Part shown: positions 12,416 through 42,220 of the stretch, in pieces
Layout of the letters: each line of letters opens with the position of its first letter
Position numbering within the stretch: the stretch's first letter is position 1
From: Serendipita indica DSM 11827
Taxonomy: Eukaryota; Basidiomycota; Agaricomycetes; Sebacinales; Serendipitaceae
NCBI GenBank assembly: GCA_910890315.1
Contig: CAJVGD010000001.1
Coordinates: forward strand, 1,302,001 to 1,366,000
Direction of reading: 5' to 3'
Length of the DNA: 64,000 bases
Position numbers and translations under genes: made by a program
The notes under the pieces: generated by a model
Told to the model about the DNA's origin: nothing
The model's input: the letters and a program-made list of their open reading frames with translations, nothing else
The model's database searches: none

Positions 12416-15130
12416 ATGTTCAGCTGGCTTCAACGACGCTGGAAGGCTGCTCGGGCGTGGATACGCTCCCACTTGGGCTCACAGTCCTTACGCAATCGAC
12501 AGCAACGCCCGGAGCGCGAAACACCAGCGCACCCGCTCGCTGGTGAGAATGGTAATGCGCAAGAGTCCTCTTTTGTGGATCAGAAACGACTCTCTGTGTT
12601 GGAAGCAACGGACACGGTGACGACGACGATTATTGCTAAACAAATCTCTCGCGACGCAGCGCAGACACACCAGGATTCGGACAATCTAGTCTACACAACC
12701 GAGCCCAATCGTACAAACGAGACGGATAGAACAAACGACAGCCTTCGCACAGACGACGTGAACCGCGCAGACGACGTAAACCACAGCGCCGAGCGCTCGT
12801 TATTTGCAGTCGGAAACGCCACAGGCCAACGGGCTGTCGATGGAAATGCAACTTTGGCTGAACAAAAACTCGTTTCGGGTCTGGAGAGCGTTCCAGAGGA
12901 TGAAAGCACGGCGATGGCCCCTGCTGCCAGTAGCGCGCTGCCAGTCGTGGCCAATGGTACGGCGGCGCTCGACGATGTTGCAGCGCCGGTGAGATCGCCG
13001 AAGAAACGCGCTGTTCTCGTACGTGACGCAATACTTAAAAGGGATGAAACGCTAACCATTTGTCTGTACAGATTGGAATCAACTATAGGGCCCATATCGT
13101 TAAGGATTGGCCGGAGCTGGATACACCCGGAAACGATGTAAAGAAGATGGAAGCGTTTTTGAAATCTCGTATGGGTTTGGTTCGCATAGGCCCCACGCGT
13201 GGAGCTCACGTCCAGTTAGGGGGTTACACCGAAATGCTGATTCTTCTGGACGAGGACGCTTACCCTCAGCCAACAGCCAATGTTGTCGTACGTATCGTGA
13301 TGTCACACGGGCTGCATGGGCTGATGGTCATCGCAGCGAGATGCGTTAAAATGGCTCGTGGAGGATGCCAGAGATGGGGACAAGCTCTTCCTCCATTGCA
13401 AGTTTTATCAAAATCTCTCCGGCTTCTCTAACATTTCAACAGACGCCGGACATGGACACCAAGTGCCAAACGAGACTCAATCCGAGGTGAGTCTCTTTTT
13501 TGCTTTTTGACATCGCTCACCCCTTTCGCAGGTGGATGGCATGGACGAGGGTACCTATGTCACACGTTATTTGGCGTAGATGCTGACCACGCTCGTAGCT
13601 ATTGTTCCTCTATGCCTCGAAGGAGACGAAGAGACTTATATCACGGACAACGAATTACACGAGCTGTTGGTTAAATCGATCCCCAGCGGTTGCTCGTTGA
13701 TAGTATGTGGGCGCTCCTTCTCTTCAACGATCTGATAACTCTGTTGTAGACTGTGTTCGACTGCTGTCACGCGGGCACAATGCTCGACCTCCCGAAAGAG
13801 TTTCCTCCAACCTTTACGGAACGACTCGTCAAGACTCTTCCTCTTCTCAAGAGCTCCTCCCTAGGTGAGTCATTTGTACGACCATCTTCCGGGCTCTTAT
13901 CTGTCGCAGTGCGCAATCATATCCACCAACGCCGGCTCAGTGAGTTCAACTAGATTGGGTGGTTTGCAGAACTGACTCGACTTAGCTCTCGATGACCCCA
14001 TCTATGCTAAAAAAGAATTCCGCCTTCGTGAAGACACCGACGTCCGTGTCAAGGCAGCAGTTTCACAAAGAAAAGCGGCTGCTATGGAGAAAGAAAGGAC
14101 GAGCAGGTTTATCAAAGCCAAAGGCGCTCGAAGGGTGTCGATCAATCCTTCGCGACAACGAACTTCGAATCTACTCAAGCTACCAGAAACCAAGATGAAC
14201 GACGCGACTGGCATCTCTGCTATGCACTATGGGGTCCCCATGAAGAAAATGCAGACGCCTCAGTCAACCTTGGACATGCCTTCGCCAATTTCACCTGCGC
14301 AAAAGGCGAATGGTACACGGATTAGCTTTGAACAGCCCACTCCTCTTGCAAAGACCCCTACATACGGCTCCATGAAGTCGGCTACGAGTGCCAAACGGTA
14401 TTTCTTTGACAAATGGCTTGTTGGAAGTGTGCACCCAGAGAATATGACGTCTCCCATCGATGACGAAACTATATCACAGTGAGTAGAGAGCATATTCCTC
14501 GTTGCATACTCTGACTCTGCCGCAGACCAACATCCGCCGCACCGGCGAATACTACGGTGCTACTTACCCCCCACCCTGAGCTGCGACGAAGCGTGGTCCC
14601 CAAAGCGACGATGAAGGAACGAGCGTCGACTCTTCATGCCTTCACACCTTCGGATGAACCCACAATGGATATTCAGCCGGATGTCACCAGCGTCGCGGCT
14701 TGTCTAGACTCGGAAGAAGCCATTGAGAAAACTGATCTAGGCGGGATTCTCACAAACGTATGTTGAATCCGGTAGGGGTGGGCCTATGTTGACAACTTGA
14801 AAGGTCTTTATCCAGTGCTTCGAGGAGCGCTCAAAAGAACACGATGACAGCATTACCCTCGGCGAACTGAGCGACTATTTGCGGTACGTGACTTGTATGG
14901 GAACAGCGTTTTAGATACTGAGATGAAACAGCGAGCATTTCAAGAAGCACACTGACAGCCTTCACGAAGACTGTGAGAAAGGTCCTGCTGGCACCACGCG
15001 GTGTCTGGGACCCAACTGTCTCTTGCCCATAGTTCCTCCAGAGCCCTTAGTCACGAGCAACAATCATTTGGTTCGTCCTCTTCTTCCCATCTCCGAACAA
15101 ACGACTCATATAACGTCAGTATCGCGATAA
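12416..15130 (+). CDS. Metacaspase / caspase-p20 domain protein with long linker
   Basis: ATG at 12416 (MFSWLQRRWKAARAWIRSHL) opens a disordered N-terminal region of about 200 residues. The p20 fold follows: KKRAVL, IGINYRAH, ELDTPGNDVKKMEAFLK, EMLILLDEDAYPQPTA, DGDKLFLH-YAGHGHQVPN with the catalytic His, VDGMDEAIVPL, and TVFDCCHAGTMLDLP with the catalytic Cys. After CAIISTNAGSALDDPIYAKK comes roughly 230 residues of linker, then p10-like VAACLDSEEAIEKTDLGGIL and FIQCFEERSKEHDDSITLGE. Read through the last possible donor, it ends TSVSR at 15130. Metacaspases are Arg/Lys-specific cysteine proteases of clan CD. The intron at 13398-13442 starts with GC and sits right before the catalytic YAGHG. 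About ten introns. The long linker is like plant type II enzymes; fungal ones are usually type I. Confidence 0.82.
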
Positions 15131-15395
15131 AGTGATCAGCATCTAATTGATCTTGCTCTCCACAGAGAGAATCTATGCCGAGACATTTTGCCTGTGTACT
15201 CATTGTCATTGTATCTGTATCACTGGTAACACTGGCAATTCAAATGCCAGATAATAGAGAAAGTGTGCATGGAGAGTTTGAACTTGGGCATCTCCCTCTT
15301 ATCCTTGATTTGATGCAAAGCGCGTGTCAGTTAGGAATACGCGCCACCGAGTTGACAACTTGGACCCGCCACCACTCGCAATTTCGTTTCTCTTG

Positions 15396-16516
15396 ATGTC
15401 CGAAGCAAAATCGAGGTAAGGATACATTCTTCTCGTCAGATCGGAATCTAGATCCGGAAACCTTTGCTGCCGTGCATATCTGAAACTGTGCTCTAGTCCA
15501 CTAGTTGCGAGTCGCAAGCTGGAGGAAGAGGCGGAGAACGGCGTAGAGGGTTCCGGGTATGTGACGACTCTGACTTCTTCGCAAGTTGACTGATATCCCA
15601 ATCCTGGTTAGCCACGGCCATGGTGACAGCGTAGAGAGTCACGGGCCTACAAAACCGGAAGAGCATGAATCGACTAGTGATCAAGATGTCAAAGTGGATC
15701 ATGGGTTGCGTATTTTTATTTTGTTTGCCACCTGGATTTACTGACACTTTGACCACGTATAATTGCTCTGGCGGCATATCGCTTTTGGGCGTAATTTGTC
15801 CTTGGCCGGTTAATGTGATGCGGTCCGCAAACAGAGCGCTCAGCCCGGAACATGATCATGAACAGGACCACCATGAACATGATCATCACGGCAAGCTGCG
15901 CGGCAAGTCGAGTTCTGACGGATCAAAGGGAGGTGGAAGTTCAGTGAAGAGACCGAGCGGTGGACCACGCAAGTAAATAATCATCTCCTCCAGAAATTAC
16001 TTTCCGTCCCTCTTCTTTTCAATTCTATTCACCCTTCTTATTTCGCTCTATCTTCCCTGCCAAGCCATTTCTGCGAGCCGGATGGACATTGCTTCTGAAA
16101 TAGTATCCCTTTGTGAATTTTGACAAACCTGACTCTTCAGGAGTGACGAATCTTATTCGACAAGCTCGTCACTTAAGGACGCGGACGACTCCAGCTCGGA
16201 GGACTCGGCTGATAAACCGGAGAACATAAAGTAAGATATGTAACATGTTGTTTGAAGCTTGTTCGTTGACGAATTTAGGACAAGACCCAAACTTCGTGGT
16301 AAAGCAAGCCCAGGTACAATCAAGGGGGGTGATGGAAGTGGTCCGAGGCCCAAACTTCGCGGTAAACCAACTCCAGATGTAGTCAAGGCGGGTGATGGAA
16401 GTGGTCCGAGGCCCAAACTTCGCGGTAAACCAACTCCAGATGTAGTCAAGGCGAATGACGGGACTGGTCCGAAAGGTCCAAAGGGTCCAAAAGAAGAGAA
16501 AAAGGACAATAAATAA
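15396..16516 (+). CDS. KLRG-1, small His/Glu-rich protein with KLRG repeats
   Basis: Six exons (15396-15415, 15497-15556, 15612-15704, 15835-15972, 16141-16230, 16279-16516) give 212 residues in one frame. The protein starts MSEAKSSPLVASRKLEEEAE, passes His-rich HGHGDSVESH and EHDHEQDHHEHDHHGKLRGK, an acidic Ser tract, then three tandem 21-residue units built on RPKLRGKxxPxxxKxxDGSG, and ends GPKGPKGPKEEKKDNK. Every intron is phase 2, so the internal exons (60, 93, 138, 90 nt) are symmetric modules. A paralogue lies at 38621-38978 with the same 20-nt first exon. No known domain; RGKP resembles the core of an AT-hook, and the His clusters might bind metal, both only inferences. The first base overlaps a possible alternative end of the metacaspase, which I reject. 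Confidence 0.7.
16278..16466 (+). repeat. Three 63-bp tandem repeats in coding exon
   Basis: Units at 16278-16340, 16341-16403 and 16404-16466, with a partial fourth from 16467. Units 2 and 3 are nearly identical (gtccgaggcccaaacttcgc...), while unit 1 is more diverged. The period of 63 keeps the reading frame and encodes 21 residues per unit with PKLRGK at its core, so this is a coding minisatellite. Confidence 0.95.
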
Positions 16517-16686: not shown

Positions 16687-18999
16687 TCATACAGGAGGCA
16701 GCGCGCTGTTCTTGCGGAGCACCTCTTTGACGGCCTGAGAAGGTGAAGCGCGCCAGTCCCACGTCCAGTTCGTAAATATCATCTTGAATCGAGGCCTCAA
16801 CCCATCTTCCTTATGTGACTCGCGTTTCCAGAAATACCACACGCAGAGCACGATCCATCCCACGATGAACACGCTCAGTGAGACAAGAAGATACTTTGTC
16901 ACGTCGCCAGCAGCCATGATAGTGAAAATCATGACCGCAGCGCTAAACGTGATGACACTCCACATCAAAAAGGCAAACGGCAGTGCCCAGATGATTGCGA
17001 GCGGTCGGTGGCCAAATGCGTGGTGATGCTGTGTCTCTAGATATTCGCAGTATTCCTCTGCAGTCCGTTCGGTGCGGTGTTTTCGGATATGCAGCAGACT
17101 AATGGCGATTGAGCCGACCGAAAACACTGTCGAAGCGAGTGAGGCCGTGATCATGGCAGTACGCATGATTTCCTGGAGTCGTGTCTGTGGCCGTTGTTGC
17201 TGAGGATCGAGAATCGGGTACGGGATGGCCAAGAATGCCATGTTGGCCGTCCAGAGCACAGTCGAGAGCAGGCTGACATCGCTCCAATCCTTGACTGTGC
17301 GGTCGATGAGGAGCTGAGACCGGGCCTTGTGTACAATCTTGTCCACCCATATCTTTTCCAGTGCATTGTAATGCGTCGCCGGTGCGTCGAAGAGGAGCAC
17401 ACACGTTATTCGGAGAAGAACCGCCAGCACAAATTGGTAAAACATGCTTAGCCGCTGTCCAAACGTCTTTGGAGTGTCGGATTCCATGGTATGTATAGAC
17501 TGTACGTCGACGCCGTCCTTGTCTGCAGCAGCTTTTTCTTCGAGAGTGATGTTGGGCACTTCAACCTCGTACGAGTGGCAACGGTCGAGTCGAGCAGCTG
17601 GATGGCCATATAGGTTTTGGAATTGCCATTCCATCATGAGCGCAGTCAGACGCGCCACAGCCCATGTCCTACGACCAGGTGGACAATCTACAATAATCAG
17701 AGATGTCCCCCAAGACGATTGGAAAACTCACGACTGAGCATAGAGAGGAAGGATTGGCATTGGTTCTCCGTCCATGAAGATGTGGAGGATACTGAAGTTG
17801 CGACGTCGATGTACATAAACGCAATTTGCTCGGTTAGGTATTTATGGGCAGCATCGACATCAATGTTGGCGTCGATGGGATAGCACTCGATATGGGACCA
17901 ATATTGTGAAGTAAGTTGTAGTCCTAAATGAGGGTCAGTAATCGGCAATTCGTTCAGAGTGGACGTACGCAGGTGCTGGTCAGCAAAAGTTCCAGGGTTG
18001 ACCCTCAGACCTCCAACATCATTAGTGGTAGTCGGTGCCGCCCAGAAGACGACTTGATTATCATGATCTGCGAGATAGTATCCGGCATACGGTCGCAAGT
18101 CCTCTTCATCTTCCCGATAAAGTTCGATGAATAGTTCGCAGCGCTTGGGAAGCTCGAATTCGTTCTCCGCAACAGTGACACGGGTAATAAAATGGGCATG
18201 CTCCAGCGTTTTGCGCACCACAGGATCGCGCGGGTCGCTGTCCGTCACGATTGGCAATGGACGGCAGACTGCCTTGCCTTTACCGTACAGCAGCGTCTAT
18301 TAGAAGAAACCGTCAGAAAAGCCCGCCAAGTGAAGATAAGCGCTTACTCCTTGCAATAAATGTTCTTCGGGCTCCATGGCCTCGCGGTGATAGTACGGCT
18401 TCCCTTCGGGATGGATATACATCTTCCACCCTTTTGGCAGGTCCTCCATCTTGCGATTCATTGGGAGGGAGCCCGGAGCGATGGGTGTATGTGCGACAGG
18501 AATTCTATTCGACGCGTCAGTCTCTCCAAGCAATTCAAGAGGGCGAGACGCACGGTGCTGGCTTGTGCCATCGACGAATGTGCTTTGGCATGGTTGGGTA
18601 AATGTCCCAAACATGACCACTACCCGGTTTTTCCTCTTCGACCATGGTTTTGCCATGCAACACGGGCTTTTCCTTTTCCTTCTGCTCCTTGAGAATCATC
18701 TGGCTAAAAGTGCCATCTGCACCCTCTGGTTCTTCGTGTAGTGAGCCCTCGGGAGACATGACCAGACCCGCGGTTCCATGGCGGGTCGTGAACGAGGTGT
18801 CAATGCGGAGGACGCGGGAGAGCGAGGACCATGTCCTATTTGGATTGCGAGCATCGGGTTGGGTAGTCTTTTTTTCGTCGTTGTTATCATTAGGAATAAT
18901 GTTATCGGCCGTTTGTTGTCGTTCTGGTTGCGCAGCAGTCTCGTTGGAGAAGCGCGGGAGACCTGGGTCCATGGAACTGTTTCTCCTCCAGAAGCTCAT
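16687..18999 (-). CDS. WW-domain membrane protein, copy A
   Basis: ATG at 18999 (MSFWRRNSSMDPGLPRFSNE). A polar N-terminal region with PGSGHVWDIYPTMPKHIRRW leads into a WW domain: LPKGWKMYIHPEGKPYYHRE (both aromatic anchors and the central Tyr pair visible). A central part follows with TLEHAHFITRVTV, FELPKRCELFIELYREDEED and YYLADHDNQVVFWA, then TSQYWSHIECYP and, after an intron, MMEWQFQNLYGHPAARLDRC. The C-terminal third has four to five hydrophobic segments (LAVLLRITCVLLF, LLSTVLWTANMAFLAIPYPI, TASLASTVFSVGSIAISLL, VITFSAAVMIFTIM, VFIVGWIVLCVWYF). It fits an uncharacterised family of WW plus transmembrane proteins known in Agaricomycetes. WW domains bind Pro-rich ligands. The next gene is a tandem copy. 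Confidence 0.8.
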
Positions 19000-19349
19000 G
19001 ATTTATTTCGTAAAGTGGAGAGCTGTCGTGAGAGTACTGGGCGTGACTGATGTGGGCGTCTGGGTCCAAGCTAACCTGCCTTCAGATTTATAAGAAAATG
19101 TTGCGCCACGGGAGTATAATCCGAGTGTAAAGCTTTCAGAAACTGTCATTCGCCCGGAACACGCACAACCGACTCGGCTTTGGATCGGAATCTGCGGGAA
19201 ACCAACGAGGCGGCTCATGAATATATTACTGGCTCATACAAGGAACAATCTCGTTAGATCGGATAGTACAGATGCAGCTAGACACACTCTGGATTCTAGA
19301 TGTCGGCCCTGTCGGTTGGCTGATTCCGAGATCAGTAGCATGCAGACGC

Positions 19350-20160
19350 TCATAGTAGCTTTCCAAGGGCTTTTGGAAGCCCTTTTCAACGCTCCAGCTA
19401 AGCACGCCTCGGAGGTACGTCTGCCGGACTTGGCCATGCAGCTTGACGCCCTCAAACGGCAAGAGCCGATTCTTGAAGTGCAGATCCTCTTTTACTGTCT
19501 ATTCGCTCACTTGTGAACTATTAATCCACGCGAAGCGACGAACACGCACGGTCACCTCGGGTTCCGGATTCCAAACAACCAAGTCTGCACCAAGTCCGAC
19601 CCTAATGGACCCCCTTTTGTCGTGTAGTCGGGCATGAAGGGCTGTTCGCTCACTGGTCTACTCTATCACGCGCTTGATGCTATACTCCTCTTCTTCGCTC
19701 CCGTCCAAAGGGCAAGCCCTAATCCAGATATCCCACCCCATGCTTTCATGGATTCTCCAACGTTGACCATTTTCAAACTGGCGACGCATGGCGAATGGTC
19801 CGATACGACAAAGTCGATTGTACCGTCGCCCAGCGCCGCCCAAAGTGTTTTATTACTTGCCCAATAGAATTTGACTTTTGGGTGACCAGAAGGTTCGCGG
19901 CGACAAGGTAGTGAAAGCACGTCTCGACTATCAACCAGAAGCTGGATGCTTTACCGTGTTTAATGATAGAAACGGTGAGTGAGGTGGCGAGGTGTACAAA
20001 CGTGACATCTTATAATGGGAGGCATGCCTGTGCGCAAATTACTATGCTGATAGCAGCGAGTTGTGTAGTCATGGAGGTGACACGAGAAATATGCCAGAGG
20101 CGTGTCGGTCTACATTCGGTTGCGAGCTTTTGTATACATATAACTCGGCATGGAAGAGTC
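19350..20160 (-). pseudogene. Truncated allantoinase pseudogene
   Basis: Matches the 3' part of the intact allantoinase at 22943-24547. Recognisable are [46 protein letters not shown] and the C-terminal [20 protein letters not shown]. The 5' half, with the His-x-His metal site, is absent: similarity stops near 20160 next to copy B of the WW gene. Within the kept part are a shortened GLGL region, a frame change after AKKR, a diverged stretch with stops at 19900-20100, and a one-base loss before the old stop (QKP-LGKLL). It cannot make an enzyme. It is a by-product of the tandem duplication. Confidence 0.85.
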
Positions 20161-20339
20161 AGACACCACGGGTATTCTGAAGACATCAGAGGAGCGGGTT
20201 GTCTGGAGCCATGAAGCGCCCTCGTAAATCCTCACCATTTGGGTGGTATTGAGCACGGGCCATTCCCTACTCTCAAAGGTAAATATATTCCTGTGCCTAC
20301 ACCTCAAATGTTACAGTTGCCTATAGCAGATTCTACAGA

Positions 20340-22595
20340 CTATATTGGTTTCTTATCGGGCGTCGCCGAATCGTGTTCCGGCAGTACTAACCAATTTATA
20401 AAGATTGCCTTGAAGTCCAGCCTTGACCCTCCCTCATTACCATGTGACCAGAAGTACCACATGCAAAGCGCCACCTCTGCCACAATGAACATGCCCAGTG
20501 TAATGAGCAGATACCTTGTTCCATTGTTAGCAGCTGTGACAGTGAAGATCATGACCGCAGCACTGAAGGTGATGACACTCCATGCCAAAAGAGTAAAAGG
20601 CAGTCGCCAGATGATAGCAAGTGGTCGGTATCCAAAGGCGTGATGATACTTCGTATATATATACTTAGAGTGGTCCTCTGCAGTCCGTACCGTCCGGTAA
20701 ATCCGGATATGCAGTAAACCAATGGCGATCGAGCCAATTGAAAACATTGTCGAGGCGAGAGAAGCAGTTATCATGGTATTACGCATGATTTCTTGAAGGC
20801 CTATCTGCGACTGCTGTTGGATCGGGTATGGGATAGCCAAAAATGCCATATTGGCCGTCCAGAGCACCGTCGCAAGAAGGCTAGTGTCGGTCCAATCCTT
20901 GAGTGTTTCATCGATGAAAAGCTGGGTACGTCTTTGGCTTGTAATCTTATCCACCGACAATCCTTCTAGCGCACGGTGGTGTGTCGCCGATATGTCGAAG
21001 ATGAGCACACATGCTATGCGAAGGAGAACTGCCAGCATGAATTGGTAAACCACGCTCAGCTGTTGCTGAGAGGTTCTTGTGTCAGGTTCTGCGGTAAGAA
21101 TGGACGGCATATCGGCATTTTCTTTGTCTGCGGCAGGTTTATCCTCGAGAGGGATGTCGGGCACTTCAACCTCGTACGAGTGGCAACGGTCGAGTCGAGC
21201 AGCCGGGTGGCCGTAGAGGTTCTGGAATTGCCAGTCCATCATGAGAGCAGTCAGACGGGCTACAGTCCACGTCTTACGGCCAGGTGGGCAGTCTATTATA
21301 CTCTGATCAGACGCGCTCTACATGTGTTGTAATACTCACGATTGAGCATAGAGAGGAAGGATTGGCATTGGCTCTCCGTCCATGGAGATGTAGAGGATGC
21401 CGAAGTTGCGATGTCGGTGCACATGAACGCGATTTGTTCGGTTAGATATTTGTGGGCCGCGTTGATATCAATGTTGGAGTCGATGGGATAGCATTCAATG
21501 TGAGACCAATATTGTGAAGCGAGTTGTAGTCCTATATGGGGTCAGTCCTCGGCAACTTTCCAGGTTGGACCCACGAAGGTGTTGGTTGGCAAAAGTTTCA
21601 GGGTTGACCTTCAAACCTCCGATGTCATTAATAGTAGTTGACGCTGCCCAGAAGACGACTTGGTTATCGTGATCTGCGAGATAATACCCTGCATAAGGCC
21701 GCAAGTCTTCTTCATCTTCCCGATAAAGCTCGATGAACAGCTCGCACCGCTTTGGGAGCTCAAACTTATTCTCCATGACAGTGACACGAGCGATAAAATG
21801 GGCATGCTCCAGCGTCTTGCGCACCACATGATCGCGCGGGTCGCTGTCTGTCACGATCGACAATGGAGGGCAGACTGCCTTGCCTTTACCGTACAGCGGC
21901 GTCTATTAGAAAGTGTCAGAAAGACTCACCAAGTAAAAGTGATAATGACAAGCGCTTACTCCTTCCAATAGGTTGTCCTCAGGCTCCATGGCCTCACGAT
22001 GATAGTACGGCTTCCCTTCAGGATGAATATACATCGTCCACCCTTTTGGCAGTTCTTTTAGCTTGCAATTCATAGCGAGTGAGCCTGGGGCAATCGGAAT
22101 GTTTGCGACGTAAATTCTATTAGGTGCCAGAGGTGTCAGTCTCTCCAAGGAACCCAATAGCTAGACCCACGGGGCTGGCTTGTGCCATCGACGGATGTGT
22201 TTTGGCATGGTTGGATAAATGTCCCAAACATGACCACTTCCCGGTTTTTCGTCTTCGACCATGGTTTGGCCCTGCAGCATAGACAATTGCCTTTCCTCCT
22301 TGGTTATGTCCTGGCTTGATGTACCATCGACAGCCTCTGGTTCATCGTATATTAACGTATCGGGAGACATGACCAGCGGCACGTCGGTGTCATGCTGGGT
22401 CTGAAACGATGTAAGGATGCGCGGGACCGAAGGCCACATCCAGATTGCTTCTGGCAAAGTGGTCTTTTTGCCGTTAATTTTATCATTGGGAATAGTGCTA
22501 TCCACGGTTCGGCGTCGTTCTGATACTGTAGGAGTCTCGTGGAACCGTGGAATTAGATCTGGGCCCGTAGAACTACTTTTCACCCAGACACCCAT
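20340..22595 (-). CDS. WW-domain membrane protein, copy B
   Basis: Tandem paralogue of the gene at 16687-18999, with the same exon layout and order: PGSGHVWDIYPTMPKHIRRW, WW domain LPKGWTMYIHPEGKPYYHRE, the EHAHFIARVTV and FELPKRCELFIELYREDEED block, MMDWQFQNLYGHPAARLDRC and the same set of hydrophobic C-terminal segments. It is shorter at the end (FKAIFINWLVLPEHDSATPD). The ATG equivalent to that of copy A is at 22595 (MGVWVKSSSTGPDLIPR); an upstream in-frame ATG at 22670 (MSTWRGTSSTG) would add 25 residues. Divergence is strongest in the N-terminal region, while the WW domain and the membrane part are kept, which suggests both copies are under selection. Function unknown. Confidence 0.78.
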
Positions 22596-22942
22596 GATTC
22601 GCTTTCTGGAAGGTGAGAATTGCCGTGAGAGTGCGGTGCCAGTAGAACTAGTTCCCCTCCAGGTGCTCATGTTCCGTGGACGTTGAGAGCTGTCGTGACA
22701 GCACGGAGAATGACTAATGTGAGCGTTGAATCCAACCAGTCTACCTGCAAATTTATACCGAGATCTTGCGCCATAGGCGTGGAACCGAGAGACTGACAAC
22801 TAACCAGCAGCGCGCTCCAACGAGGCACCTCAAGCACGATCGGAGAACAGCCTCTTTATATCTGGTAGTACAGATCCAACTAGATAGGATTGGGACCTAG
22901 ATGGCGGGTTGACTTCAGTTGGCTGGTCCAGCACAGCGATGC

Positions 22943-24547
22943 TCATAAGAGCTTTCCAAAAGGTTTTTGGAAGCCCTTTTCCACGCTCCAGCTGAGCACG
23001 CCTCTGAGGTACGTCTGCTGGACTTGACCATGAAGCTTGACGCCCTCAAACGGTGATAACCGATTCTTGAAGTGCAGATCCTCTTTCGCTATCTATTCAT
23101 GTATTCGTCAGATACAATTCGGAGAGACATGACAAGTACGTACCGTCACCTCGGTATTTGGATTCCACACAATTAAATCTGCGTCATGTCCAACCGTAAT
23201 AGACCCCTTTCTGTGGTGTAATCGGGCATGAAGGGCCGTTCGCTCACTGGTCCACTCCATCACGCGCTTGATGCTATATCCTCTCTTCTTCGCTCCCGTC
23301 CAAAGGACGCTCAGACCAAGTCCCAGTCCAGATATCCCACCCCACGCCTTCATGAAATCCCCACCGTCGACCATTTTCAAACTCGCGACGCACGGCGAGT
23401 GGTCCGATACAACAAAATCGATTGTACCGTCGCCCAGTGCCGCCCAAAGTGCTTCCCTATTTGCCTCGTCACGAATAGGTGGGCAGCATTTGAACTCTGG
23501 ATGACCAGAGGGAACGTCCGAGGCGATAAATGTGAGATAGTGGAAACATGTCTCGACTGTCAGTTTCAAGCCGGATGCTCTGGCGCGTTTGATGATTGGG
23601 ATGGCGGATGAGGCGGTGAGGTGGACAATATGGCATCGTACTGATGGGTAGGATGCCTGTAAGCGGGTTATCATGTTGATAGCGGCGAGTTCCATTTGTT
23701 GTGGGCGCGAGGCGAGAAATGTACTATAGTCGTGTGGATCTGCATCCGGTTGCGAGTCTTCGTGTACATCCAATTCGGCATGGAAGAGCAAGGCTGCGTC
23801 GGTGTCCTGTAGATGTCAGTAGTGAGAGTGATTGAGATAACAAGGCGTACCTCGAGTTTTTCCATTGCCAGCTTGAGATCATTCTCCTCTACGTGGGGGA
23901 ATTCCTATCGCCGGTTATGTCATATAGAAGTGATTGAAGGTGGCACACCTCGACGCCACTATTGATGAGGAAACACTTGAAGCCTTTGACACCAGCATCC
24001 AATAGCGGTCTCAGGTCGTCCTTATCACTTTGTCAATAGGCGTCTCGCCAAGAGATGATAACCGACTTGATTACCAGGGATAACGCCTCCCCAGAATGCG
24101 ACATCTGCCCAGCATTGTCCATTGGCGGCGTCGCGCTTGACGGTCAGGTTGTGGACGGTGGTCGTTGGTGGAATCGAGTTGAGGGGCATGTCGACGACAG
24201 TGGTGACACCTCCAGCGACAGCTGCTTGAGTCCCTGTTGCGAATCCCTCCCAGTCTGTGCGCCCGGGCTCGTTGAGGTGGACATGTGCACTGTTTAGATG
24301 GCAAAGGTCAAAGAGCGTGGGGATAAGCAACGTAGGGGACTTACTCGACGAGACCTGGGAGTATGTAAAGATCTCCAGCATCAATAAATTCGTAGCGATC
24401 ATTGTCTGCGAATGCGTCTTGCGGCGAGTAGCCAGAGTCGATGGCGGTGATCTTGCCTGTGGATGGATCTGCATGGATCGTCGCTGGGACGGGCTGATCG
24501 TGTGCTGGCAGGAGGACATTTCGGGACGTAAGCACGAGGAGCCGCAT
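22943..24547 (-). CDS. DAL1: Allantoinase
   Basis: Hydrolyses allantoin to allantoate in purine-nitrogen use. ATG at 24547 ([14 protein letters not shown]); an earlier in-frame GTG is not a credible start. Key blocks: [11 protein letters not shown] joined across an intron to [16 protein letters not shown] (His-x-His zinc ligands), [32 protein letters not shown] with the Lys that becomes carboxylated, [59 protein letters not shown] with the catalytic Asp, and the C-terminal [10 protein letters not shown] and [15 protein letters not shown] ending at 22943. Length and order match fungal cyclic amidohydrolases of the allantoinase type. A decayed copy of its 3' part lies at 19350-20160. Confidence 0.92.
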
Positions 24548-29901: not shown

Positions 29902-31189
29902 ATGTGTCGTTTGGTCATCTACAAGGGTACCGAGCCCATCTTACTCTCGCATGTGCGTCCTCTGCATTTCGAAAGTGATATCAGAGACTAATAGACGTAT
30001 AGCTTCTTACTCGACCGGCTCATTCAATCATCAATCAGGCCTTTGACTCACGGCTGCGCTTGGACAGACGCAGGCCCATCAACGGCGATGGTTTTGGAGT
30101 TGGTAAGCATCACGGTGTGCTCAACGCTCTAATTGACGCGTTGAATAGGTTGGTACGATACGCCTTCGGACGGTGGCTCAGAGCCATGCATATTCACCTC
30201 TATCACTCCGGCTTGGAACAATGCAAACTTGACGCGTATCGCCGAGAAGATTCGTAGTCCGCTCGTATTTGGTCACGTTAGAGCCACGACGGCCGGCAGT
30301 ATGTCTCTCATCCTTCGCGGTTCCCGAAATAGACTAATGCCGTTTGCAGGTCTGAGTCAAGACAATTGCCATCCTTGGCGATATGGACGACTCATGGTTA
30401 GTCGACTTGTTTAGTCGCTGCATGGTACTGATACTAACCGCACGGATACAGTGGATGCATAATGGGGGAATCGCCGAATTTGACCGTCTCAAACGGCCAC
30501 TTCAAGCTCTTCTTCCAGACGAAATCTTCGCTGTCCCACAAGGGAACACAGACTCTGAATGGGCGTTTGCCCTGTTCCTCGCCGAACTCTCCAAACTTCA
30601 TCCCATCATTCCCAAGTCATCGTCCAATCCAGACCACTCTGCACCAATTCCGCACGACCTTCTACAAAAAGCGATGTTGGCGACCATTTCGACGCTCAAC
30701 AGACTCGCGCGTGATGCGGGCGTAAGCGAACCCTCGCTCATGAACTTTTGTGTGGCAGACGGGCAAACTGTCGTAGCGACGCGATACATCTCGAGCAAAA
30801 AGGACGAGGCGGCGAGCTTGTACTACTCGAGCGGAACAACGTTTTGTGAGGAGTCTGTCCACTGCACCAACAACGATGCTGCTACTGTAAACGGCAATGG
30901 AAGTGGAAGCGGGCATTATCGCATGTCCAAACTTGACAAACGCGAAAACATTATCATGATCGCCTCGGAACCGCTCACGTTTGAGAAGGCAGACTGGCTC
31001 GAGATACGAACAAACACAATGGTGGTCATCACTCCCAAGATGAATTTCTTGCAAATTCCCATCAAGGACGAGTTTTACGTCCCACACTCTGTCGCTCACA
31101 CACGTACCATCGAGTTTGCTGCGACAAAGGGCCTGCTTAGTCCAAAGACTGGCGCCTTTGTTCCACGCATCGCGGGAGAAGCTTCTTGA
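29902..31189 (+). CDS. DUG3: DUG3-type class II glutamine amidotransferase
   Basis: ATG at 29902 gives MCRLVIYKGTEPILLSH; Cys2 is the nucleophile exposed after Met removal. Then LLTRPAHSIINQAFDSRLRL, PINGDGFGVGWY, an exon with EPCIFTSITPAWNNANL, PLVFGHVRATTAG, NCHPW and MWMHNGGIAEFDRLKR. The rest (LPDEIFAVPQGNTDSEWAFA and VVITPKMNFLQIP) fits the Dug3 family, the amidotransferase-like part of the Dug1-Dug2-Dug3 system that breaks down glutathione in the cytosol. Five exons. The C-terminus IAGEAS is normal for the family. It is convergent with the P450 gene. Confidence 0.88.
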
Positions 31190-31523
31190 GTCCTCTCGCC
31201 TTCATCATATATCCCAGAGTCCTTTGTGTTCACTGCGTCACGCCCATGTAGAGATCCAACTATGATTTATTGAGAAGCTGCTTTCTATCTACAGCGAATA
31301 AGATACCCTCCACAAAAGAGGTTAAGATAGTGAGAGGCGGCGTCATCGTGATCAAAAGGTTTGCGGAGTCGAAAGGTGGTGTACATTTGGGAGGTAGAAC
31401 AAAGGCGGAGCGGGCATAGAGGGTTCGGAGGAGTCGTTATCGGGGTCGTAAGAGAGGATCACGGTCACACTTGGTGGTTAGGGTATTTGAGGATAGGGTC
31501 AAGGGGGGTTGGTTGTCATCCAT

Positions 31524-33446
31524 TTAAGCGACGACGGGACGGAGACGGAGGGGCAAGCATGCTCCATCCTCAGGTCTGCTGATCACGCGAGGTTGGATTG
31601 TGGCCGACATGCGCGATTCGATGGGTTCAATGACTTCGAATTCAAACGCGCGGATAAAGGCCATGATAAGAATCTTCATCTCAAAGACGGCTAGAGACAA
31701 GTTAGTCGAATAGAATTGCCTTTGGAGCGAATTAGACGTACCTAGTCGGTAGCCGAGGCAGCTTCGAGCGCCCACAAGGAAGGTGAGCATACCACTCCAT
31801 GCACCAGGCAAGAACTTTCCGTCTGGAGTACCGCTCTTCTCAATCCAGCGCTCTGGACGGAAGCTATCGCCATCACCCCAGACAGAAGAGAATCGGTTGA
31901 CAGCTACAACGGGGATGTGGATAACCTGACCGGCCTTGATCGGGATCTCGTGGATAAGGCGACCGTCGGTACCGACAATGGGCGTGGCGAGCGGAAGAAT
32001 ATCGTCCTTTTCAGCCACCTTTTCGTTGCGTGCAGAGGGAGGGAAGAGTCGGAAACCTTCGCGAGTGACGGCGTCGAGATAAGGGAAGTTTTCGCTGGAC
32101 CAAAGCTCGTCGAAAGTAGATTCCTATCGGTGCTCATGACCTCTTCGCGCAACTTGCGTTGAACTTCTGGGTGCTGAGCGAGCATGTAGAGCGTAAAGTT
32201 GAGGACGACAGAGGTGGTCTCATGGCCAGCGATGACAAAGGTGACGATATGGTCAAGGAGTTCGTCGTCAGAGATGCGCTTCTTGCTTTTCACCGAGGTT
32301 CGCACGCACTAGAAACCGATGAGAATCGGTTGTAAGCACAAAACTGCAACAACTCACAAAGAATCGAGAGGAGATCTCGGCCATTGTCGATATCCGAAAC
32401 ACCTCGCTGAATGAGCTTGTTGGCGAAAGGCTTGATCGTGTTTTTAATGTTGCTCTGAGCCTTGATAGAGGGGAGAGGAAGTTGGCCGATCCAAGGGAAT
32501 TGAAGTGCGAGGAGAGCAAGAAAACCTTCCCAGACCATGCCGAGATTGGCTTGCTTACGCCAGCCTTCCATAATCGAGCGAGCCTCGGGGCTTTGACCTT
32601 GTTGAAAGTCGTGTGCAAATGCGACACGACCAATCACGTCGAGAGTCGAAGTGGCCGTCCAGTCGAGCATGTTGACGTCTCGGACACCACCATGGGATTC
32701 GATCTGAGATTGCAGACGAGAAACGACATTATTGACTGCGAGCCACATGTCGGGACCCATTGCGCGGATGCGGTCGAGCGTAAATGCAGGGGCGAGGAGT
32801 GCGCGCATAGGCTTGTGAGCGTGCTCGCCCTCGACCCAGACTATACCACGTCCAGTGAGGCGCTCAATAATGGGTCTAAACACAGCTGAATGAGGGTAGT
32901 TGTACGCATTCTGCAAAGGCCGTTGATGCGATGTCGAAAGTCTGGGAAAAAGTCGGACCTTGCAAAGAATGCGGTCAATGGCCTTTGGGTCAGTGACACA
33001 GAGCTAATTTAGATGATTAGACTATTGCTAGACTGCCTCGAGACGCCCTCGACTCACTATGTCATGATGCTATCATGTCGAAATATCGTCAGATGCGCAA
33101 ATTTAGACGCAAAAAAATATGAACGTACACCCCAAGCACCCTTGATCTTAAAATTGGGACCGAAACGAGTGATCCATTGACGCCATTGGGAGCCACAGTC
33201 GTCTTCAAACTCGAGCCATTCGTGACCCCAGATTTTGGAGGCACCGTCCTGGATGCGGAGAGGAGTTGTAAGCATCTTGAAGGCAACTACGAGCATGTCA
33301 CAAAGGAGACTTACGGGTACGGGAATGTTCTGGAGACGCGAGTAATTGTCCCACCACTTGTAGGCTACATAACCAGCGGTGGAGGCAACGAGCGCAAGTG
33401 CAAGTTGAAGGGGGAGCGGAAGTGAAATTAAGAGGCCGGCGGACAT
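31524..33446 (-). CDS. Cytochrome P450
   Basis: ATG at 33446 (MSAGLLISLPLPLQLALALV) with an N-terminal membrane anchor for the ER. The I-helix is FVIAGHETTSVVLNF (AGxxT), the K-helix is DAVTREGFRLFPP (ExxR), the PERW-type motif is FRPERWI and the haem loop is FLVGARSCLGYRL with the axial Cys. Length is about 500 residues, as usual. Six or more introns. The VWVEGEHAHKPMRALLAPAF block resembles basidiomycete CYP families that lack an assigned substrate; no secondary-metabolite cluster is visible around it. Function cannot be inferred beyond monooxygenation. Confidence 0.9.
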
Positions 33447-33878
33447 GGTGGAGTTCAAGATTGAGGCGGGCTGGGTGGGGGAAAGAGAATGAGAACAAGG
33501 CTAAGGCAACACCAATTCGATTTATAGGCGGCGTCTCGTACCACTCGCTGGCCGGTCGCCATTGTCTGCCAGGCAGAGCAAGAACTGCAGGAATCCCTTT
33601 TTTCGCTATTTCAACATTAATTTCATATTTTGTTCGGCCTGCTGTATTTGTGCACTCTCTGGGCGCCCACAATAGGCCAATTCAGTCCCGTGGCCACTTA
33701 GGGAAGACTAAAGAAAACTGACTCCAAAACAATCACCGGAGACCCTGGAGCAATACTCACAAGCAACTCATTGGATGACGGAGATGCGTTGAGCATTCAG
33801 CTCCAGGGTATCGGCTCTTGGCCACGGCACGTCACATCCGGCATCCTTTGACAGGCAATCCCAAGAGTTTGAACCGTC

Positions 33879-34710
33879 TCAACGTTGTCTCTGTGCCGTT
33901 GGCTGAGCGGCAAGTTCGGCGGAGACCTCTTGAACCCATTGTGCACGCTGAAGCTCGCGCGGTATAGTCTAGAAACCACACCCGTCATTATCATGCGCTC
34001 ATGTCCAAAGGTATCAGATGCACCACTCACCTCTTTTAGTCGTTCAGCCTCTCGTTGCGCCTCGAGGATCTCCTCTCGCAACTCGGGTTCTCGCGCAACA
34101 AAGGCTACACGAGGTTAGGAACACCACAACATGGAGTGAGAACAACGTACAGAATTCGTCCTCGTCCGCTACTGATGGTACCTCTTCGAGCTCCGACAAA
34201 AGGGCCTTTTCCGCCGCCCGCTGTCGTTCGAGCAAACCACTAGCAGCTCTTGAACCTTTGCGGGGACAGTCCGTCGTTCAGCTATTGTCTGCCCGAGACC
34301 AACGATTGCTCCTGCAACGCAATCACGGTCCGGTCCAGCGCCTCGTCAAAGGGCAAGCGACCTTTCAATCTGTTGAGATGCGCAAACAATTGACAGTTCC
34401 AGGCGACTCACGCGGCTGATCCACATATTCTTCAAAGTTGACGCCATTGACGCGCAGATTCGGCCCAGCAAGCGCAAATGTGTCGTCTACCCACTGATTT
34501 TGAAATTGTCAGACACTATTTCACATTTCAGGCGGTGCATCGGCTGACCTTGAGGAGCTCCTTTTCGAGTAAAGCCCGCTTTGCCGCGTCTTTGTTCCCT
34601 GGGAGCGTGGTTGACAACACATTGAGCACCGCTTTCCTAAAGTTGTCTTTGATCGCATTGTAGCTATCCATGCTTGGGACGGTCACTCGCGATAATCCAT
34701 GGGCGGGCAT
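33879..34710 (-). CDS. MIS14: Mis14/NSL1-like kinetochore protein
   Basis: ATG at 34710 (MPAHGLSRVTVPSMDSYNAI), DNFRKAVLNVLSTTLPGNKD, then WVDDTFALAGPNLRVNGVNF, RLPFDEALDRTVIALQEQSL, GQTIAERRTVPAKVQELL, LLERQRAAEKALLSELEEVP and REPELREEILEAQREAERLK, ending LAAQPTAQRQR at 33879. The order of a helical N-part, NLRVNG, PFDEALD and then IAExRRxxPxK matches Mis14/NSL1, a subunit of the MIND complex that links centromeres to Ndc80. Two one-base shifts around 34250-34310 disrupt the frame between ALQEQSL, IAERRTVP and SGLLERQR; no intron explains both, so I suspect base-call errors. Assignment rests on motif order, as this family is poorly conserved. Confidence 0.6.
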
Positions 34711-34910
34711 GTTTGTCGTCTGTTTCGTGCACTGATGACTAGCTTTATGTTGTTGAATAAACTAAAGAAATATCTGGGAGACCCAAGGAGTGGCTTGAAC
34801 ACGGTCCCCTCAATGTGGTTGGGCTCCAACCCTATCTTGGACATACCCATCGCAAGCGCATTGCTACTGCCCGCCAGCTCTCTCTGTAACGCGTAAAAGA
34901 CGCGTCAAAT

Positions 34911-37168
34911 ATGTCATTAGATGCATTGAAGGAGAATGTGGAGGCCCTGAACGACTGGCTCCGCGCTGCAACCGGTCGGTTCCTTCAAACTCGCCGCAAA
35001 GGGGATGGCTAATCTTATATATGGGATCAGATCTTGAGAAAGAGGTAAATCAAGTGTCTTTTGACGCGTCTCACTTCTCATAAACGCGTCAGAACGCGCG
35101 GTTGACAACACAACTCGTGGAACAATTAACAGCGTACAATGAGCTCCGCAGTAAATACGACATACTAAAGCAAGAGGCAATCAAACGGCAGACAGATGCT
35201 GAAGAGCTGGAGCAGACAAAGGCTGACAACAATGCCAAGATGGAGAAACTGTCTACCACGGTTCATTCAACACTTGGTATGCTCAACTCGGTTTTCCGTA
35301 AGCTTCGGGAGCAAGAACAGAGGATCCTCGAGGCAGAGGCCAGAGAACAGACACTGCAGACCCGTTACGACTCTCTACAAGAACGAGAGGATGCTTTGGC
35401 AGCCGAGAACGCTGGATTAAAGACAAAGTTGGAAGCAGTCAATAACCACGAAGTGTATGTTATTCAAGGGTTGAAAGCTTTAGCTCATCGTATCACAGCC
35501 GCACACTCAAGGACCGCAATTCGTCCGAATACAAAGTAACCTCTTCCGCAGATCAAAGAAAGGCCCAGCTCGTGGTCGAGTCCTTGGAACGTTTACAGCG
35601 TCGTTTTAACCGTCTCGCCGACCAAAAAGAAAGAGCAGAGAGGAAGTTCTTCAAATCCTACCTCGAATGGAGTGGTTTCAAGGAATGGTGGCGACAGTTC
35701 TGTTCCATTCCGAGCGTCAATGACGCTATTCGTACCTTTAATCGCTCACTACGAGACAGCAAAGCCCGAGGTGCTCTTCCAGGAAACGCTTTGAAGTCGA
35801 CCGACTCTGTGGCGAGGAGGCATGACGATGACCCCCCCCTCTATCACTGGAGCCGTCGAAGCTATCGACAGATGCAATTGTCACCACCCGTGCTGCGCCG
35901 ACGGGTGAGAAAGTGTTGTCGTCCAAGGACATGCTTGAAGCGGCTTGTGAAGATCTCTCAAGGACGTATCACCAATTCGCTACACAATACGAAGCGTTTG
36001 GGTTTGACGCTCCTCCCTTTACCACCGAGCAATCGAAAGAGGCCACTCAGATTTTCGATACCGACAAGACGCAAGAGACATCGGCGGGTACACCAACGCG
36101 GCCGTTCAGGTTTAATCTCACAGGTATTCCTCTTCCTCAACCGACAATGTAAGTGATCTGTCAGTTCACAAGCACGAGAGCTGATTTTTCTTCAGTTATG
36201 AATCACCAACGAGGAGGATCAAGACACCCGTTCGTCACGTCTCTCCAGACTCGCCCGTGGCTATCAAGCTTGAAGAATCGCCCATCAAGGTTCCGAATGC
36301 AGCTCCTCCCCATCCAAGCGCGAGTACTCCGCTTGGCGAAGCTCCTGTTGCTGGTCCCAGCCATTCGTCTCTTGGGAAGCGAAAAGCTCCCATCGAAGAA
36401 AGCCATTCGTTGCAAGTAAAGAGCGGCAGAAAGAGCTACGTACCCTTGGTGCAGCAATACATGGACGGGACCAAAGTCGTGTCATCCAACTCGAGCAAGA
36501 AGCGGCATACAGAGGCGCTTGATAGGGACTCGATTACACCGAAACAACATGGTAAACCGATCAAAGGCCGATCAACAACGGGAAAGGCGTAAGTCCAACT
36601 CCTTGGACAAGAAAGCAAAGGATTTACGGTCGAATAGCGTGACCAGATACGAAGTCAATCCTGATCGGAACAACGGGGTTAATTTTGCGTATGACGAAGT
36701 CGTGCGCAACAAGGCAGAGAGAAAGCGTATGGAAGCGACCGACTGTGATCAATGTCGAGAGGTGAGTAGAGTCCATCATTCTTATCATTATCTCACCGGT
36801 ACTTTTTAGTTTTACAAGGCTGCCGGGCCTCTCCCACCACGATTGCAGGCGCCTCTCTGGAAGAGCCCGACATCAAGTCAAGACCCCGCCGCTGCACCAC
36901 AGCGTCATTGTAAGCACCACAGCAACAAAGAGGAATCGGACGATAGTGGCCTGAGTCGGAAGACTCGGGGGTACTCATCGCCAAGAAGTCTCGCGCCATC
37001 GCTATATCATGCCCTCCGGCGAGACACCTCCAGGCTTCTGGGATCTGGATTTCCTGACACGCAACGGGTCGAAAACTGAGGGATGAAGCTGAGAAGATGC
37101 ATCGTAAGCGCGAGAGGTTCATGGAGAAAGAGGCGGGCAAGAAGGATGGCAAGTATCGTTTGAAATGA
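34911..37168 (+). CDS. CTP1: Sae2/Ctp1/CtIP-type DNA end-resection factor
   Basis: ATG at 34911 (MSLDALKENVEALNDWLRAA), two tiny exons, then a long coiled coil (QLVEQLTAYNELRSKYDILK up to ENAGLKTKLEAVNN), a second one (ERLQRRFNRLADQKERAERK), and a disordered middle. The C-terminal signature is DCDQCREFYKAAGPLPP, SRHRYIMPSGETPPGFWDLD and F-PDTQRVEKLRDEAEK. CxxC with SRHR and PPGFW is the Sae2/CtIP C-terminal domain that activates Mre11 nuclease for double-strand-break resection. Frame breaks occur at 37051-37054 (CC where CCC is needed) and 37071-37074 (a short A run), inside this conserved domain. About 700 residues. It is divergent from the kinetochore gene by 200 bp and its stop lies 8 bp from that of the DUF202 gene. 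Confidence 0.82.
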
Positions 37169-37176
37169 GTCTGTAT

Positions 37177-37671
37177 TCAGTGTTTCGATAGGAGTGTAAT
37201 TATTGTAGCAATAATGAGGAGAATAATGGATGCCATGACTATTGTATGTTTTCTGCGAGGAGCTCAGAAAGAATGTCTTTTTAAGTCGTAGCATACCTGG
37301 AAGACTGAACGAACGCCGCTCCGTTCTTCAAACCTTTCCATAGTCTATTATAGTTTTGGATAGCTGCAGCGAGACAGACGAGACTAGCTGCGAAATAGAG
37401 TGACGCCAGAGGCAATGCATAAGTCGGTACTTTGTGTTCATGAGATCCGCTCGGGTCTGGAAGCCGTGCGTTAAGGAGTAATGCAGATGAAAGAAGTCCA
37501 AGGAGTAGTCCGAATCGTATTTGACTGAGGTATGTGCGTTCAATGGCTGGATAATCCTCAGTCTTCAGAAAAAGGCCCACCAACAGGGCGACGCACCACA
37601 AAAGTCGCGAGCCTCTGAGCCTACATTGTCCACGGTAACTGTTTTGAATGTTTCTCGGTTTAATAAAGGCA
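37177..37671 (-). CDS. DUF202 small membrane protein
   Basis: Three exons: ATG at 37671 (MPLLNRETFKTVTVDNVGSE), then ARDFSIERTYLSQIRFGLLL, the first membrane span GLLLGLLSSALLLNARL, a second one LPLASLYFAASLVCLAAAI with NYNRLWKGLKNGAAFVQSS, and the last exon HTIVMASIILLIIATIITLL. N-x-GS-x-ARD and ERTYL-x-x-x-R are the hallmark of the DUF202 family (PF02656). Length of about 125 residues is typical. Family members sit in vacuolar or plasma membranes, with unknown activity in fungi. Only 69 bp lie between its ATG and that of AP-3 sigma on the other strand. Confidence 0.82.
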
Positions 37672-37740
37672 TGGGCCGTCGAGGTACTGGCCAAAGCGAG
37701 TTCCAAGGTGGCAGATACAGCTTGGCCCCGACCTCAAAAT

Positions 37741-38474
37741 ATGATACACTCCGTTTTGATCTGTACGTTAGCTGGATAATTTGTTCTGCGGATATTAATG
37801 AAGATACGATAGTCAATACGTCTGGAACACCACGTCTTATCAAGTTCTATACGCCGCTCAGGTCGCCCGAACTTGCGACAGTCATTCCACAGAAAATATT
37901 CAAGCTCATCTCATCACGACCTCCAGGAGCATGCAACTTTCTTGATGTGCCAGACCTAGACATGACTTCCCAGCTTAACATCGCGAGCAATGACCGCATA
38001 TGCGTAGTCTACCGAAACTATGCGACTCTGTACTTTGTCTTTGTCATAGACGGTGGAGAAAGCGAGCTCGGGATCCTAGACCTGATCCAGGTGGGCGATC
38101 CTTTACAATCACTGAGCAAGGATTACTGATATCCGATTAACGTATAGGTATTTGTGGAATCACTCGATAAGGCGTTTAGAAATGTGTGAACTCGACTCGT
38201 CTTTCACTTTGACGAAGTGCACGCCATTCTCGCCGAAATCGTCCAGGGAGGACTGGTATTGGAGACCAACGTCGCCGAAATCTCTCAGGTGGTCGAAGAG
38301 GGCTTCAAAGCGCGAAAAGCGTCTTATGCCGCGGCCAATCCTCTTAGTCTCAGTGGTGGGGTGATGGGTGGCTCGAGTCGTGGGGGAAATAGTAACGTCA
38401 GTTCACCATTAAGCAGTCTGCAAACCCCTATTGGTTGGTTGACAGAGCGTATTACCGGCCTGAACGCTCGGTAG
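37741..38474 (+). CDS. APS3: AP-3 complex sigma subunit
   Basis: Exon 1 (37741-37762) MIHSVLI joins across a 50-bp intron to FNTSGTPRLIKFYTPL, then IPQKIFKLISSRPPGACNFL, RICVVYRNYATLYFVFVIDG, SELGILDLIQ, VFVESLDKAFRNV, LVFHFDEVHAILAEIVQGGL and VLETNVAEISQVVEEGFKAR. A Ser/Gly-rich tail ends at 38474. This is the small longin-fold subunit of AP-3, which sorts cargo from the Golgi or endosome to the vacuole. Around 38184-38196 the CELD block is damaged: in the frame a TGA replaces it, but a missing TG in a TGTGTG run and a missing C would restore it, so it is probably a base-call problem. Confidence 0.9.
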
Positions 38475-38620
38475 CATCCCTAATGGACAGCCGCGTATCC
38501 TATCTTATCGTGATGTACCAGTAAATGTTTATTGCTCGTGATAGCACACCTCCATACCAGTATACTTGTGTCCAATGGACAGCGTTCTGTGGAACAGTGA
38601 TGTCGATTTCTGGAAACCGG

Positions 38621-38978
38621 TTATCCCTTCTTAGGCCCGGTTGGTCCTCCAGAGACACCTCCTTTCACTGTTCCTCCAGTCGGACGTCCTCTAAGTTTGC
38701 CTGCGGGTTTCTTCCTGCGAGACATCAATACGGCCAATAGCACCACACAAAGCCAAGGCATACGCACTGTTCAGATTCCGATTTTGGCACCTCTTCTGTC
38801 ACTGACTCGGTGGTCTCGGTGTGTTCGTGATCCTGCTGTTCGGCATGCTCGATATCCTGTTGTTGCGGCTCGACGTCTGGGTGGCTGGGACGATTCATGC
38901 AGATATACAGTCAAAATCTCGATCGCTTATGATCAGTAATTGTTGAGCTTTTACATACACTGTAGGTTGCTCAGACAT
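38621..38978 (-). CDS. KLRG-2, small Glu/His-rich protein with one KLRG motif
   Basis: Three exons (38959-38978, 38768-38884, 38621-38714) give 76 residues in a single frame. Start MSEQPTVHPDVEPQQQDIEH, then an acidic/His part AEQQDHEHTETTESVTEEVP, and a basic Gly-rich end KKPAGKLRGRPTGGTVKGG with GPTGPKKG. It mirrors KLRG-1 at 15396-16516: the same MSE start, a 20-nt first exon, phase-2 introns, acidic/His middle and KLRG[K/R]P[T] plus VKGG tail. RGRP equals the core of an AT-hook. No known family recognised. It lies between AP-3 sigma and the RING gene, with about 145 bp to APS3. Confidence 0.68.
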
Positions 38979-39167
38979 CGTGCAGCAAGGTTGGCTCGAC
39001 GGGGAAGGATTCAAGATCGAAGAGCAGGCGCCTAAGTCGTCTGGGGCGCCAGGAATCATAGCGCGTTGAAAATGACGTTATCTAGTCCATCTCTTGGTGA
39101 TACATGAATAACAATAAACAAAGACATCACAGTGCGCGTTCTATCTTGATACACAGGAGGAGAATCC

Positions 39168-42176: not shown

Positions 42177-42220
42177 GTCGGTAAGGAGCACTGCCAGTGG
42201 AAACGGTGCGATTAGGAGTA

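What the first reader, a model, noticed from the sequence alone, without database searches (positions are those of the whole stretch)
15396..16516. KLRG family: two small paralogous genes with identical first-exon design
KLRG-1 (here) and KLRG-2 (38621-38978, minus) are 22 kb apart on opposite strands. Both start MSE, have a first exon of exactly 20 nt, use only phase-2 introns, have an acidic/His-rich middle, and end in KLRG[K/R] followed by a Gly/Lys-rich tail (VKGG, GPKGPK / GPTGPKKG). Neither matches a family I know. RGRP in KLRG-2 equals an AT-hook core and RGKP in KLRG-1 is close to it, so a small chromatin or nucleic-acid binder is one idea; His clusters may instead bind metal. All internal exons are multiples of three, so alternative splicing or exon duplication would keep the frame.
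Basis: partly seen in the sequence, partly recalled or inferred. Interest (0 to 1): 0.72.

Follow-up and report, generated by a model that had tools for sequence, protein, structure and literature searches.

The report
Two small disordered-protein genes, fungus
Two small neighbouring genes of a root-dwelling fungus look real and distantly related through a short repeated basic motif; they probably make floppy, charge-patterned proteins of unproven role, an ordinary sort of gene without a known family.

Summary
The observation largely holds. Both gene models reproduce: KLRG-1, 15396-16516 (+), 212 aa, six exons; KLRG-2, 38621-38978 (-), 76 aa, three exons. The genome is almost certainly Serendipita indica.

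The link between the genes is probably real but short: a basic Gly-rich module, KLRG[K/R]-x6-K, once in KLRG-2 and four times in KLRG-1 (diverged in exon 4, three tandem 63-nt units in exon 6). The KLRG-2 tail ranks KLRG-1 exons 6 and 4 first and second of 3428 ORFs after itself and its allele, though filtered BLASTP at 1e-3 does not link them.

The 'identical first exon' is model-dependent: KLRG-2 has an in-frame ATG 81 nt upstream. Five protein queries found no third gene; a KLRG-2 copy on contig C3 is best read as an allele.

The AT-hook idea fails its test. Best reading: intracellular disordered proteins with acidic/His arms and polyanion-binding basic modules; a hydrophilin-like role is the main rival. 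Function is inferred; expression was not tested.

The parts
15396..15415 (+). KLRG-1 exon 1 (20 nt, MSEAKS + 2 nt)
   Evidence: in-frame stop 90 nt upstream, no in-frame ATG between
15497..15556 (+). KLRG-1 exon 2 (60 nt)
15612..15704 (+). KLRG-1 exon 3 (93 nt, His/acid-rich); 3' border uncertain by 5 nt
15835..15972 (+). KLRG-1 exon 4 (138 nt): HDHEQDHHEHDHHG then a diverged KLRG module; if intron 4 is retained the protein ends here, ...GGPRK stop (104 aa)
16141..16230 (+). KLRG-1 exon 5 (90 nt, Ser/acid-rich linker; residues 105-134 have net charge -6)
16279..16516 (+). KLRG-1 exon 6 (238 nt incl. stop): three KLRG modules and a GPKGPKGPK tail
16286..16472 (+). 63-nt in-frame tandem repeat, 3.0 copies, 88% matches (21-aa KLRG unit)
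38959..38978 (-). KLRG-2 exon 1 (20 nt); could extend to 39059 if the in-frame ATG at -81 is used
38768..38884 (-). KLRG-2 exon 2 (117 nt, acidic with His)
38621..38714 (-). KLRG-2 exon 3 (94 nt incl. stop): KKPAGKLRGRPTGGTVKGGVSGGPTGPKKG
   Evidence: the copy on contig C3 is identical in all three exons

Best explanation
KLRG-1 and KLRG-2 are two real, distantly paralogous nuclear genes of Serendipita indica. They encode intracellular, intrinsically disordered proteins built from two kinds of block: an acidic, His-containing N-terminal arm and a basic Gly-rich module of about 21 residues (KLRG[K/R]-x6-K). KLRG-2 has one module. KLRG-1 has one diverged module in exon 4 and three recent tandem ones in exon 6. 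Most likely mechanism (inferred, not shown): each basic module is a weak, extended polyanion-binding element (RNA, ribosome or DNA backbone, or acidic partners), the acidic/His arm competes with it and makes binding dependent on charge, pH or metal, and module number sets the avidity. Shown here: frame-consistent gene models, similarity of the module, charge blocks, predicted disorder. Inferred: expression, splicing in the cell, cell compartment, binding, role.
For: Models with GT-AG introns and an in-frame stop on retention of each of 7 introns. The partner gene ranks first among non-self ORFs in both directions, 3428 ORFs. Between unit 1 and the KLRG-2 tail the 63 nt are 33/63 identical, by codon position 12, 14 and 7 of 21, and 7 of 11 shared residues use a different codon, so the protein rather than the DNA is conserved. 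KLRGK of exon 4 and of unit 1 in exon 6 use different codons at all five residues. Net charge of blocks: KLRG-1 -15/+7/-6/+13, KLRG-2 -13/+8; GRAVY -1.50 and -1.45; no Cys, Trp or Phe. Both lie on the disordered side of the charge-hydropathy line (line recalled). KLRG-2 exons are identical in the C3 copy, the only two differences over 38300-39300 lying in intron 1; divergence there is low, so this is weak support.
Against: No relative found outside this genome in the collections searched, but none of these is a collection of fungal genomes. Similarity outside the module is compositional, and block shuffles reach the whole-protein score in 58 of 5000. Exon 4 against the KLRG-2 tail is weak on its own (298 of 20,000 shuffles reach it). 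BLASTP between window ORFs with the low-complexity filter at E <= 1e-3 linked neither the two genes nor exon 4 with exon 6. Genome queries with the KLRG-2 tail or with KLRG-1 units did not retrieve the other gene at E <= 10; only a typed consensus of both found both, partly by construction. No binding or expression evidence of any kind.
Confidence: 0.4

Rival explanations
1. Hydrophilin-like stress protectants: bulk disordered, Gly-rich, very hydrophilic proteins that protect cell contents under drying, salt or heat without a specific ligand.
For: Gly 14.2% and 13.2%, GRAVY -1.50 and -1.45. Paper PMC4190154 (one passage seen) describes hydrophilins as high in glycine and in mean hydrophilicity; the thresholds used (Gly > 6%, hydrophilicity > 1) are recalled.
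Against: The criteria are loose: 22 of 543 window stop-to-stop ORFs of 60 aa or more meet them. The conserved KLRG core argues for a specific contact.
Confidence: 0.25
2. Metal or proton buffering by the His/Asp/Glu-rich arm (for example HDHEQDHHEHDHH), the KLRG tail serving only for localisation.
For: 12 His in the first 76 residues of KLRG-1 (15.8%) and 4 in the first 45 of KLRG-2 (8.9%).
Against: His clustering is strong only in KLRG-1; KLRG-2 has only a short EHAEQQDHEH stretch. What the two genes share best is the basic module, not the His arm.
Confidence: 0.13
3. AT-hook-like chromatin binder.
For: RGRP in KLRG-2 equals the AT-hook core (core recalled).
Against: PF02178 does not match either gene; all four KLRG-1 modules have RGK in place of RGR.
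Confidence: 0.07
4. Not a gene pair: one or both are mis-modelled or non-coding, and the shared motif is convergence of low-complexity basic tails.
For: No expression evidence; whole-protein similarity is modest once local composition is kept; filtered BLASTP at 1e-3 does not link them.
Against: Introns with stops on retention, different codons at shared residues, first rank of the partner in ORF ranking.
Confidence: 0.12

Closest known systems
Hydrophilins / LEA-like disordered proteins
   Same: Gly-rich, very hydrophilic, few hydrophobic or aromatic residues, predicted disordered
   Different: No Pfam match of any kind; acidic and basic blocks are segregated; a KLRG module is repeated
AT-hook proteins (PF02178)
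   Same: RGRP tetrapeptide in KLRG-2
   Different: No PF02178 match; KLRG-1 has RGK in all four modules
DELD proteins of Serendipita indica (PMC3192844, passages seen)
   Same: Small, His-containing, several related genes, no known domain, same fungus
   Different: DELD proteins are 101-135 aa, His/Ala-rich and carry a C-terminal RSIDELD motif; the KLRG proteins end in KDNK and PKKG

Membership tests
AT-hook (PF02178) | Match to the AT_hook profile | tested here: not met
   5 genome places at E <= 10, none at either KLRG gene; 0 Pfam families for both proteins. Short models can be lost by the filters and the first look.
AT-hook (PF02178) | Binds the minor groove of AT-rich DNA | not testable with these tools
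   needs a binding assay
Hydrophilin | Gly > 6% and mean hydrophilicity > 1 (thresholds recalled) | tested here: met
   Gly 14.2% and 13.2%, GRAVY -1.50 and -1.45; 22 of 543 window ORFs also pass
Hydrophilin | Induction by osmotic or drying stress | not testable with these tools
   no expression data at hand
DELD proteins of S. indica | C-terminal RSIDELD motif | tested here: not met
   proteins end in ...EEKKDNK and ...GPTGPKKG
LEA / dehydrin | Match to a LEA or dehydrin profile | tested here: not met
   0 Pfam families at E <= 10 for both proteins

The most novel reading that the evidence does not exclude
An undescribed Serendipita-lineage family of charge-block disordered proteins, built by duplication of a KLRG polyanion-binding module. 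KLRG-1 could switch between a one-module 104-aa form resembling KLRG-2 (intron 4 retained; the stop overlaps the splice donor) and a four-module 212-aa form, so that splicing would set binding avidity.
Probability: 0.12. Interest if true: 0.45.

Novelty: new member of a known kind. Interest (0 to 1): 0.2.

Why it matters
Small disordered proteins make up part of the unnamed share of fungal proteomes. A pair 22 kb apart with one and four copies of the same module is a compact case for asking what a repeated basic module does and how it spreads, in a fungus used as a root-endophyte model. It is otherwise an ordinary gene pair without a known family.

Tried and rejected
AT-hook: rejected. Solved-structure relatives: two chance-level matches for KLRG-2 (best E 0.49, the tail of a 60S ribosomal protein L34a, similar in composition) and none for the KLRG-1 repeats. 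Prokaryote genomes (175 pattern matches) and viral contigs (16 and 58 pattern matches) gave no relative by tblastn; neither is a collection of fungal genomes, so these say nothing about fungi. Segmental duplication of the two loci with their neighbours: comparison of 993 window ORFs of 40 aa or more (BLASTP, E <= 1e-3) gave no pair linking the two neighbourhoods; the hits are a tandem duplication next to KLRG-1 plus two short overlapping opposite-strand ORF pairs. A recent third copy: the C3 copy of KLRG-2 is best read as allelic. Intron-4 retention as something special: retention of any of the five KLRG-1 introns gives a stop, and a phase-2 donor that begins GTAA gives one at once, as in introns 1 and 5 too, so the short form is only a possibility. 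Literature: full-text search for KLRGRP, KLRGKP, KLRGRPTGG and GKLRGR listed 2 papers, by title on muscle stem cells and on wasp venom, neither opened; KLRG as a word start does not occur in the main text of the S. indica genome paper PMC3192844; searches on S. indica with histidine-rich or disordered proteins, on hydrophilins and on orphan genes were read as listings only and showed nothing on these genes. In one search the listing of alternative first-exon donors worked only for KLRG-1, because overlapping GT sites were skipped for KLRG-2. No structure prediction and no signal-peptide predictor was run. The neighbours were only partly scanned for domains (10 ORFs, 3 window ORFs; one search failed).

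Full report
Source organism. The assembly is 24,708,602 bases in 55 contigs. A phosphate transporter found in it with TIGR00887 (exon-wise and below the curated cut-off; ORF) matches PDB chain 7sp5_A without a mismatch over 248 residues; a second transporter on the same contig is a more distant relative of the same chain. That 7sp5 is the Piriformospora (Serendipita) indica transporter is recalled. The 2021 resequencing paper of S. indica reports 24.7 Mb, 57 contigs, GC 50.8% and 9441 predicted genes with 59,045 exons (PMC8385953, passages seen), which fits, though the contig number differs by two. That makes about six exons per gene, so the six exons of KLRG-1 are average.

Gene models. Both reproduce as written. 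KLRG-1: exons of 20, 60, 93, 138, 90 and 238 nt, 212 aa. KLRG-2: exons of 20, 117 and 94 nt, 76 aa. Retaining any of the seven introns gives an in-frame stop. KLRG-1 has an in-frame stop 90 nt upstream of its ATG and no in-frame ATG between. KLRG-2 has an in-frame ATG at -81, the next upstream stop being at -102, so its first exon is 20 or 101 nt long depending on where transcription starts. Intron 3 of KLRG-1 has a second frame-keeping solution (donor 5 nt later, acceptor 2 nt later) and a third with an acceptor 9 nt later. The 'identical first-exon design' is therefore suggestive and not established.

The shared part. The tail of KLRG-2 (KLRGRPTGGTVKGGVSGGP) matches unit 1 of KLRG-1 exon 6 (KLRGKASPGTIKGGDGSGP). 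In a ranking of 3428 stop-to-stop ORFs (20 aa or more; window, two 10-kb flanks, contig C3), the KLRG-2 tail scores 69 with the exon-6 ORF and 45 with the exon-4 ORF, first and second after itself and its allele, the next being 38. Unit 1 scores 62 with KLRG-2 and its allele, and then 44 with both the exon-4 ORF and an unrelated ORF at 45397-45738. The exon-4 tail scores 52 with exon 6 and 45 with KLRG-2, the next being 42 (all). Shuffles: 1 of 20,000 reaches the unit-1 score; 298 of 20,000 reach exon 4 against KLRG-2; 77 of 20,000 reach exon 4 against unit 1; on whole proteins 7 of 5000 full and 58 of 5000 block shuffles reach 75. Against this, BLASTP between window ORFs with the low-complexity filter at E <= 1e-3 linked none of the three. 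So exon 6 and KLRG-2 very probably share a module, while exon 4 is a weaker, probable member.

Level of conservation. In 21 aligned codons of unit 1 and KLRG-2, 4 are the same codon, 7 are another codon for the same residue and 10 differ in residue. DNA identity is 33 of 63, by codon position 12, 14 and 7 of 21. This pattern points to selection on the protein. Within exon 6 the units are an in-frame 63-nt tandem repeat with 88% matches.

Copies in the genome. Protein queries with units 2-3, the KLRG-2 tail, exon 4, a typed module consensus and unit 1 found at E <= 10 only these two genes and a second KLRG-2 on the 26.8-kb contig C3; a DNA query with all of KLRG-1 found only itself. Against my reading, queries with one gene did not retrieve the other; only the consensus found both, which is partly by construction. 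The first look of that tool is a heuristic, so diverged copies may be missed. C3 matches window 30856-50830 at 98.9% over 20,070 aligned positions, and 50963-51772 at 95.4%. The S. indica genome paper concludes that the strain is most likely a heterokaryon with two genetically distinct nuclei (PMC3192844, passage seen), so C3 is best read as the other haplotype. Over 38300-39300 the two copies differ at two places only, both in intron 1 of KLRG-2.

Protein character. The proteins alternate acidic and basic blocks: KLRG-1 -15, +7, -6, +13; KLRG-2 -13, +8. GRAVY is -1.50 and -1.45, with no Cys, Trp or Phe and one Tyr in all. Both fall on the disordered side of the charge-hydropathy line (line recalled). 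There is no Pfam match and no solved relative beyond chance. The N-termini are hydrophilic and do not look like signal peptides (by eye; no predictor was run), so an intracellular place is assumed.

Mechanism. The most conserved feature is the basic KLRG module, followed by Gly-rich, positively charged sequence. The simplest reading is an extended contact with a polyanion, with acidic/His arms that tune it; a bulk hydrophilin role or metal buffering by the His arm are rivals. None of these steps is shown. The AT-hook idea is not supported.

Verdict. A probably real and modestly interesting pair of small disordered-protein genes with a repeated module. No known family was found for it in what could be searched here, but no fungal proteome could be searched, so whether it is restricted to this lineage is open.

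Noticed in passing
window 16690-20310 and 20343-23904, minus strand: A tandem duplication next to KLRG-1: two blocks about 3.6 kb apart with translated identities of about 40-94% between ORFs; an ORF at the 5' end of the second block, 23111-23815, matches Amidohydro_1 (PF01979, E 1e-12).
   Followed up: partly
L006 (contig C3) 807-6804 against window 50831-50962: The other haplotype carries about 6 kb that the window lacks at this place, with no clear domain in the 7 ORFs scanned of 16 of 90 aa or more (best RhoGAP E 0.003, below the Pfam cut-off); nature unknown.
   Followed up: partly
window 15130-15395 and 38979-39167: Both KLRG genes lie close downstream of a same-strand gene by my own reading of the sequence: about 190 nt after an ORF with RING-like Cys/His spacing at KLRG-2, and about 265 nt or less at KLRG-1. 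Read-through or shared transcripts were not tested.
   Followed up: no
window 37509-38126 (+): A clathrin-adaptor small-chain match (PF01217, E 2.2e-15) on the opposite strand appears to lie tail to tail with KLRG-2.
   Followed up: no
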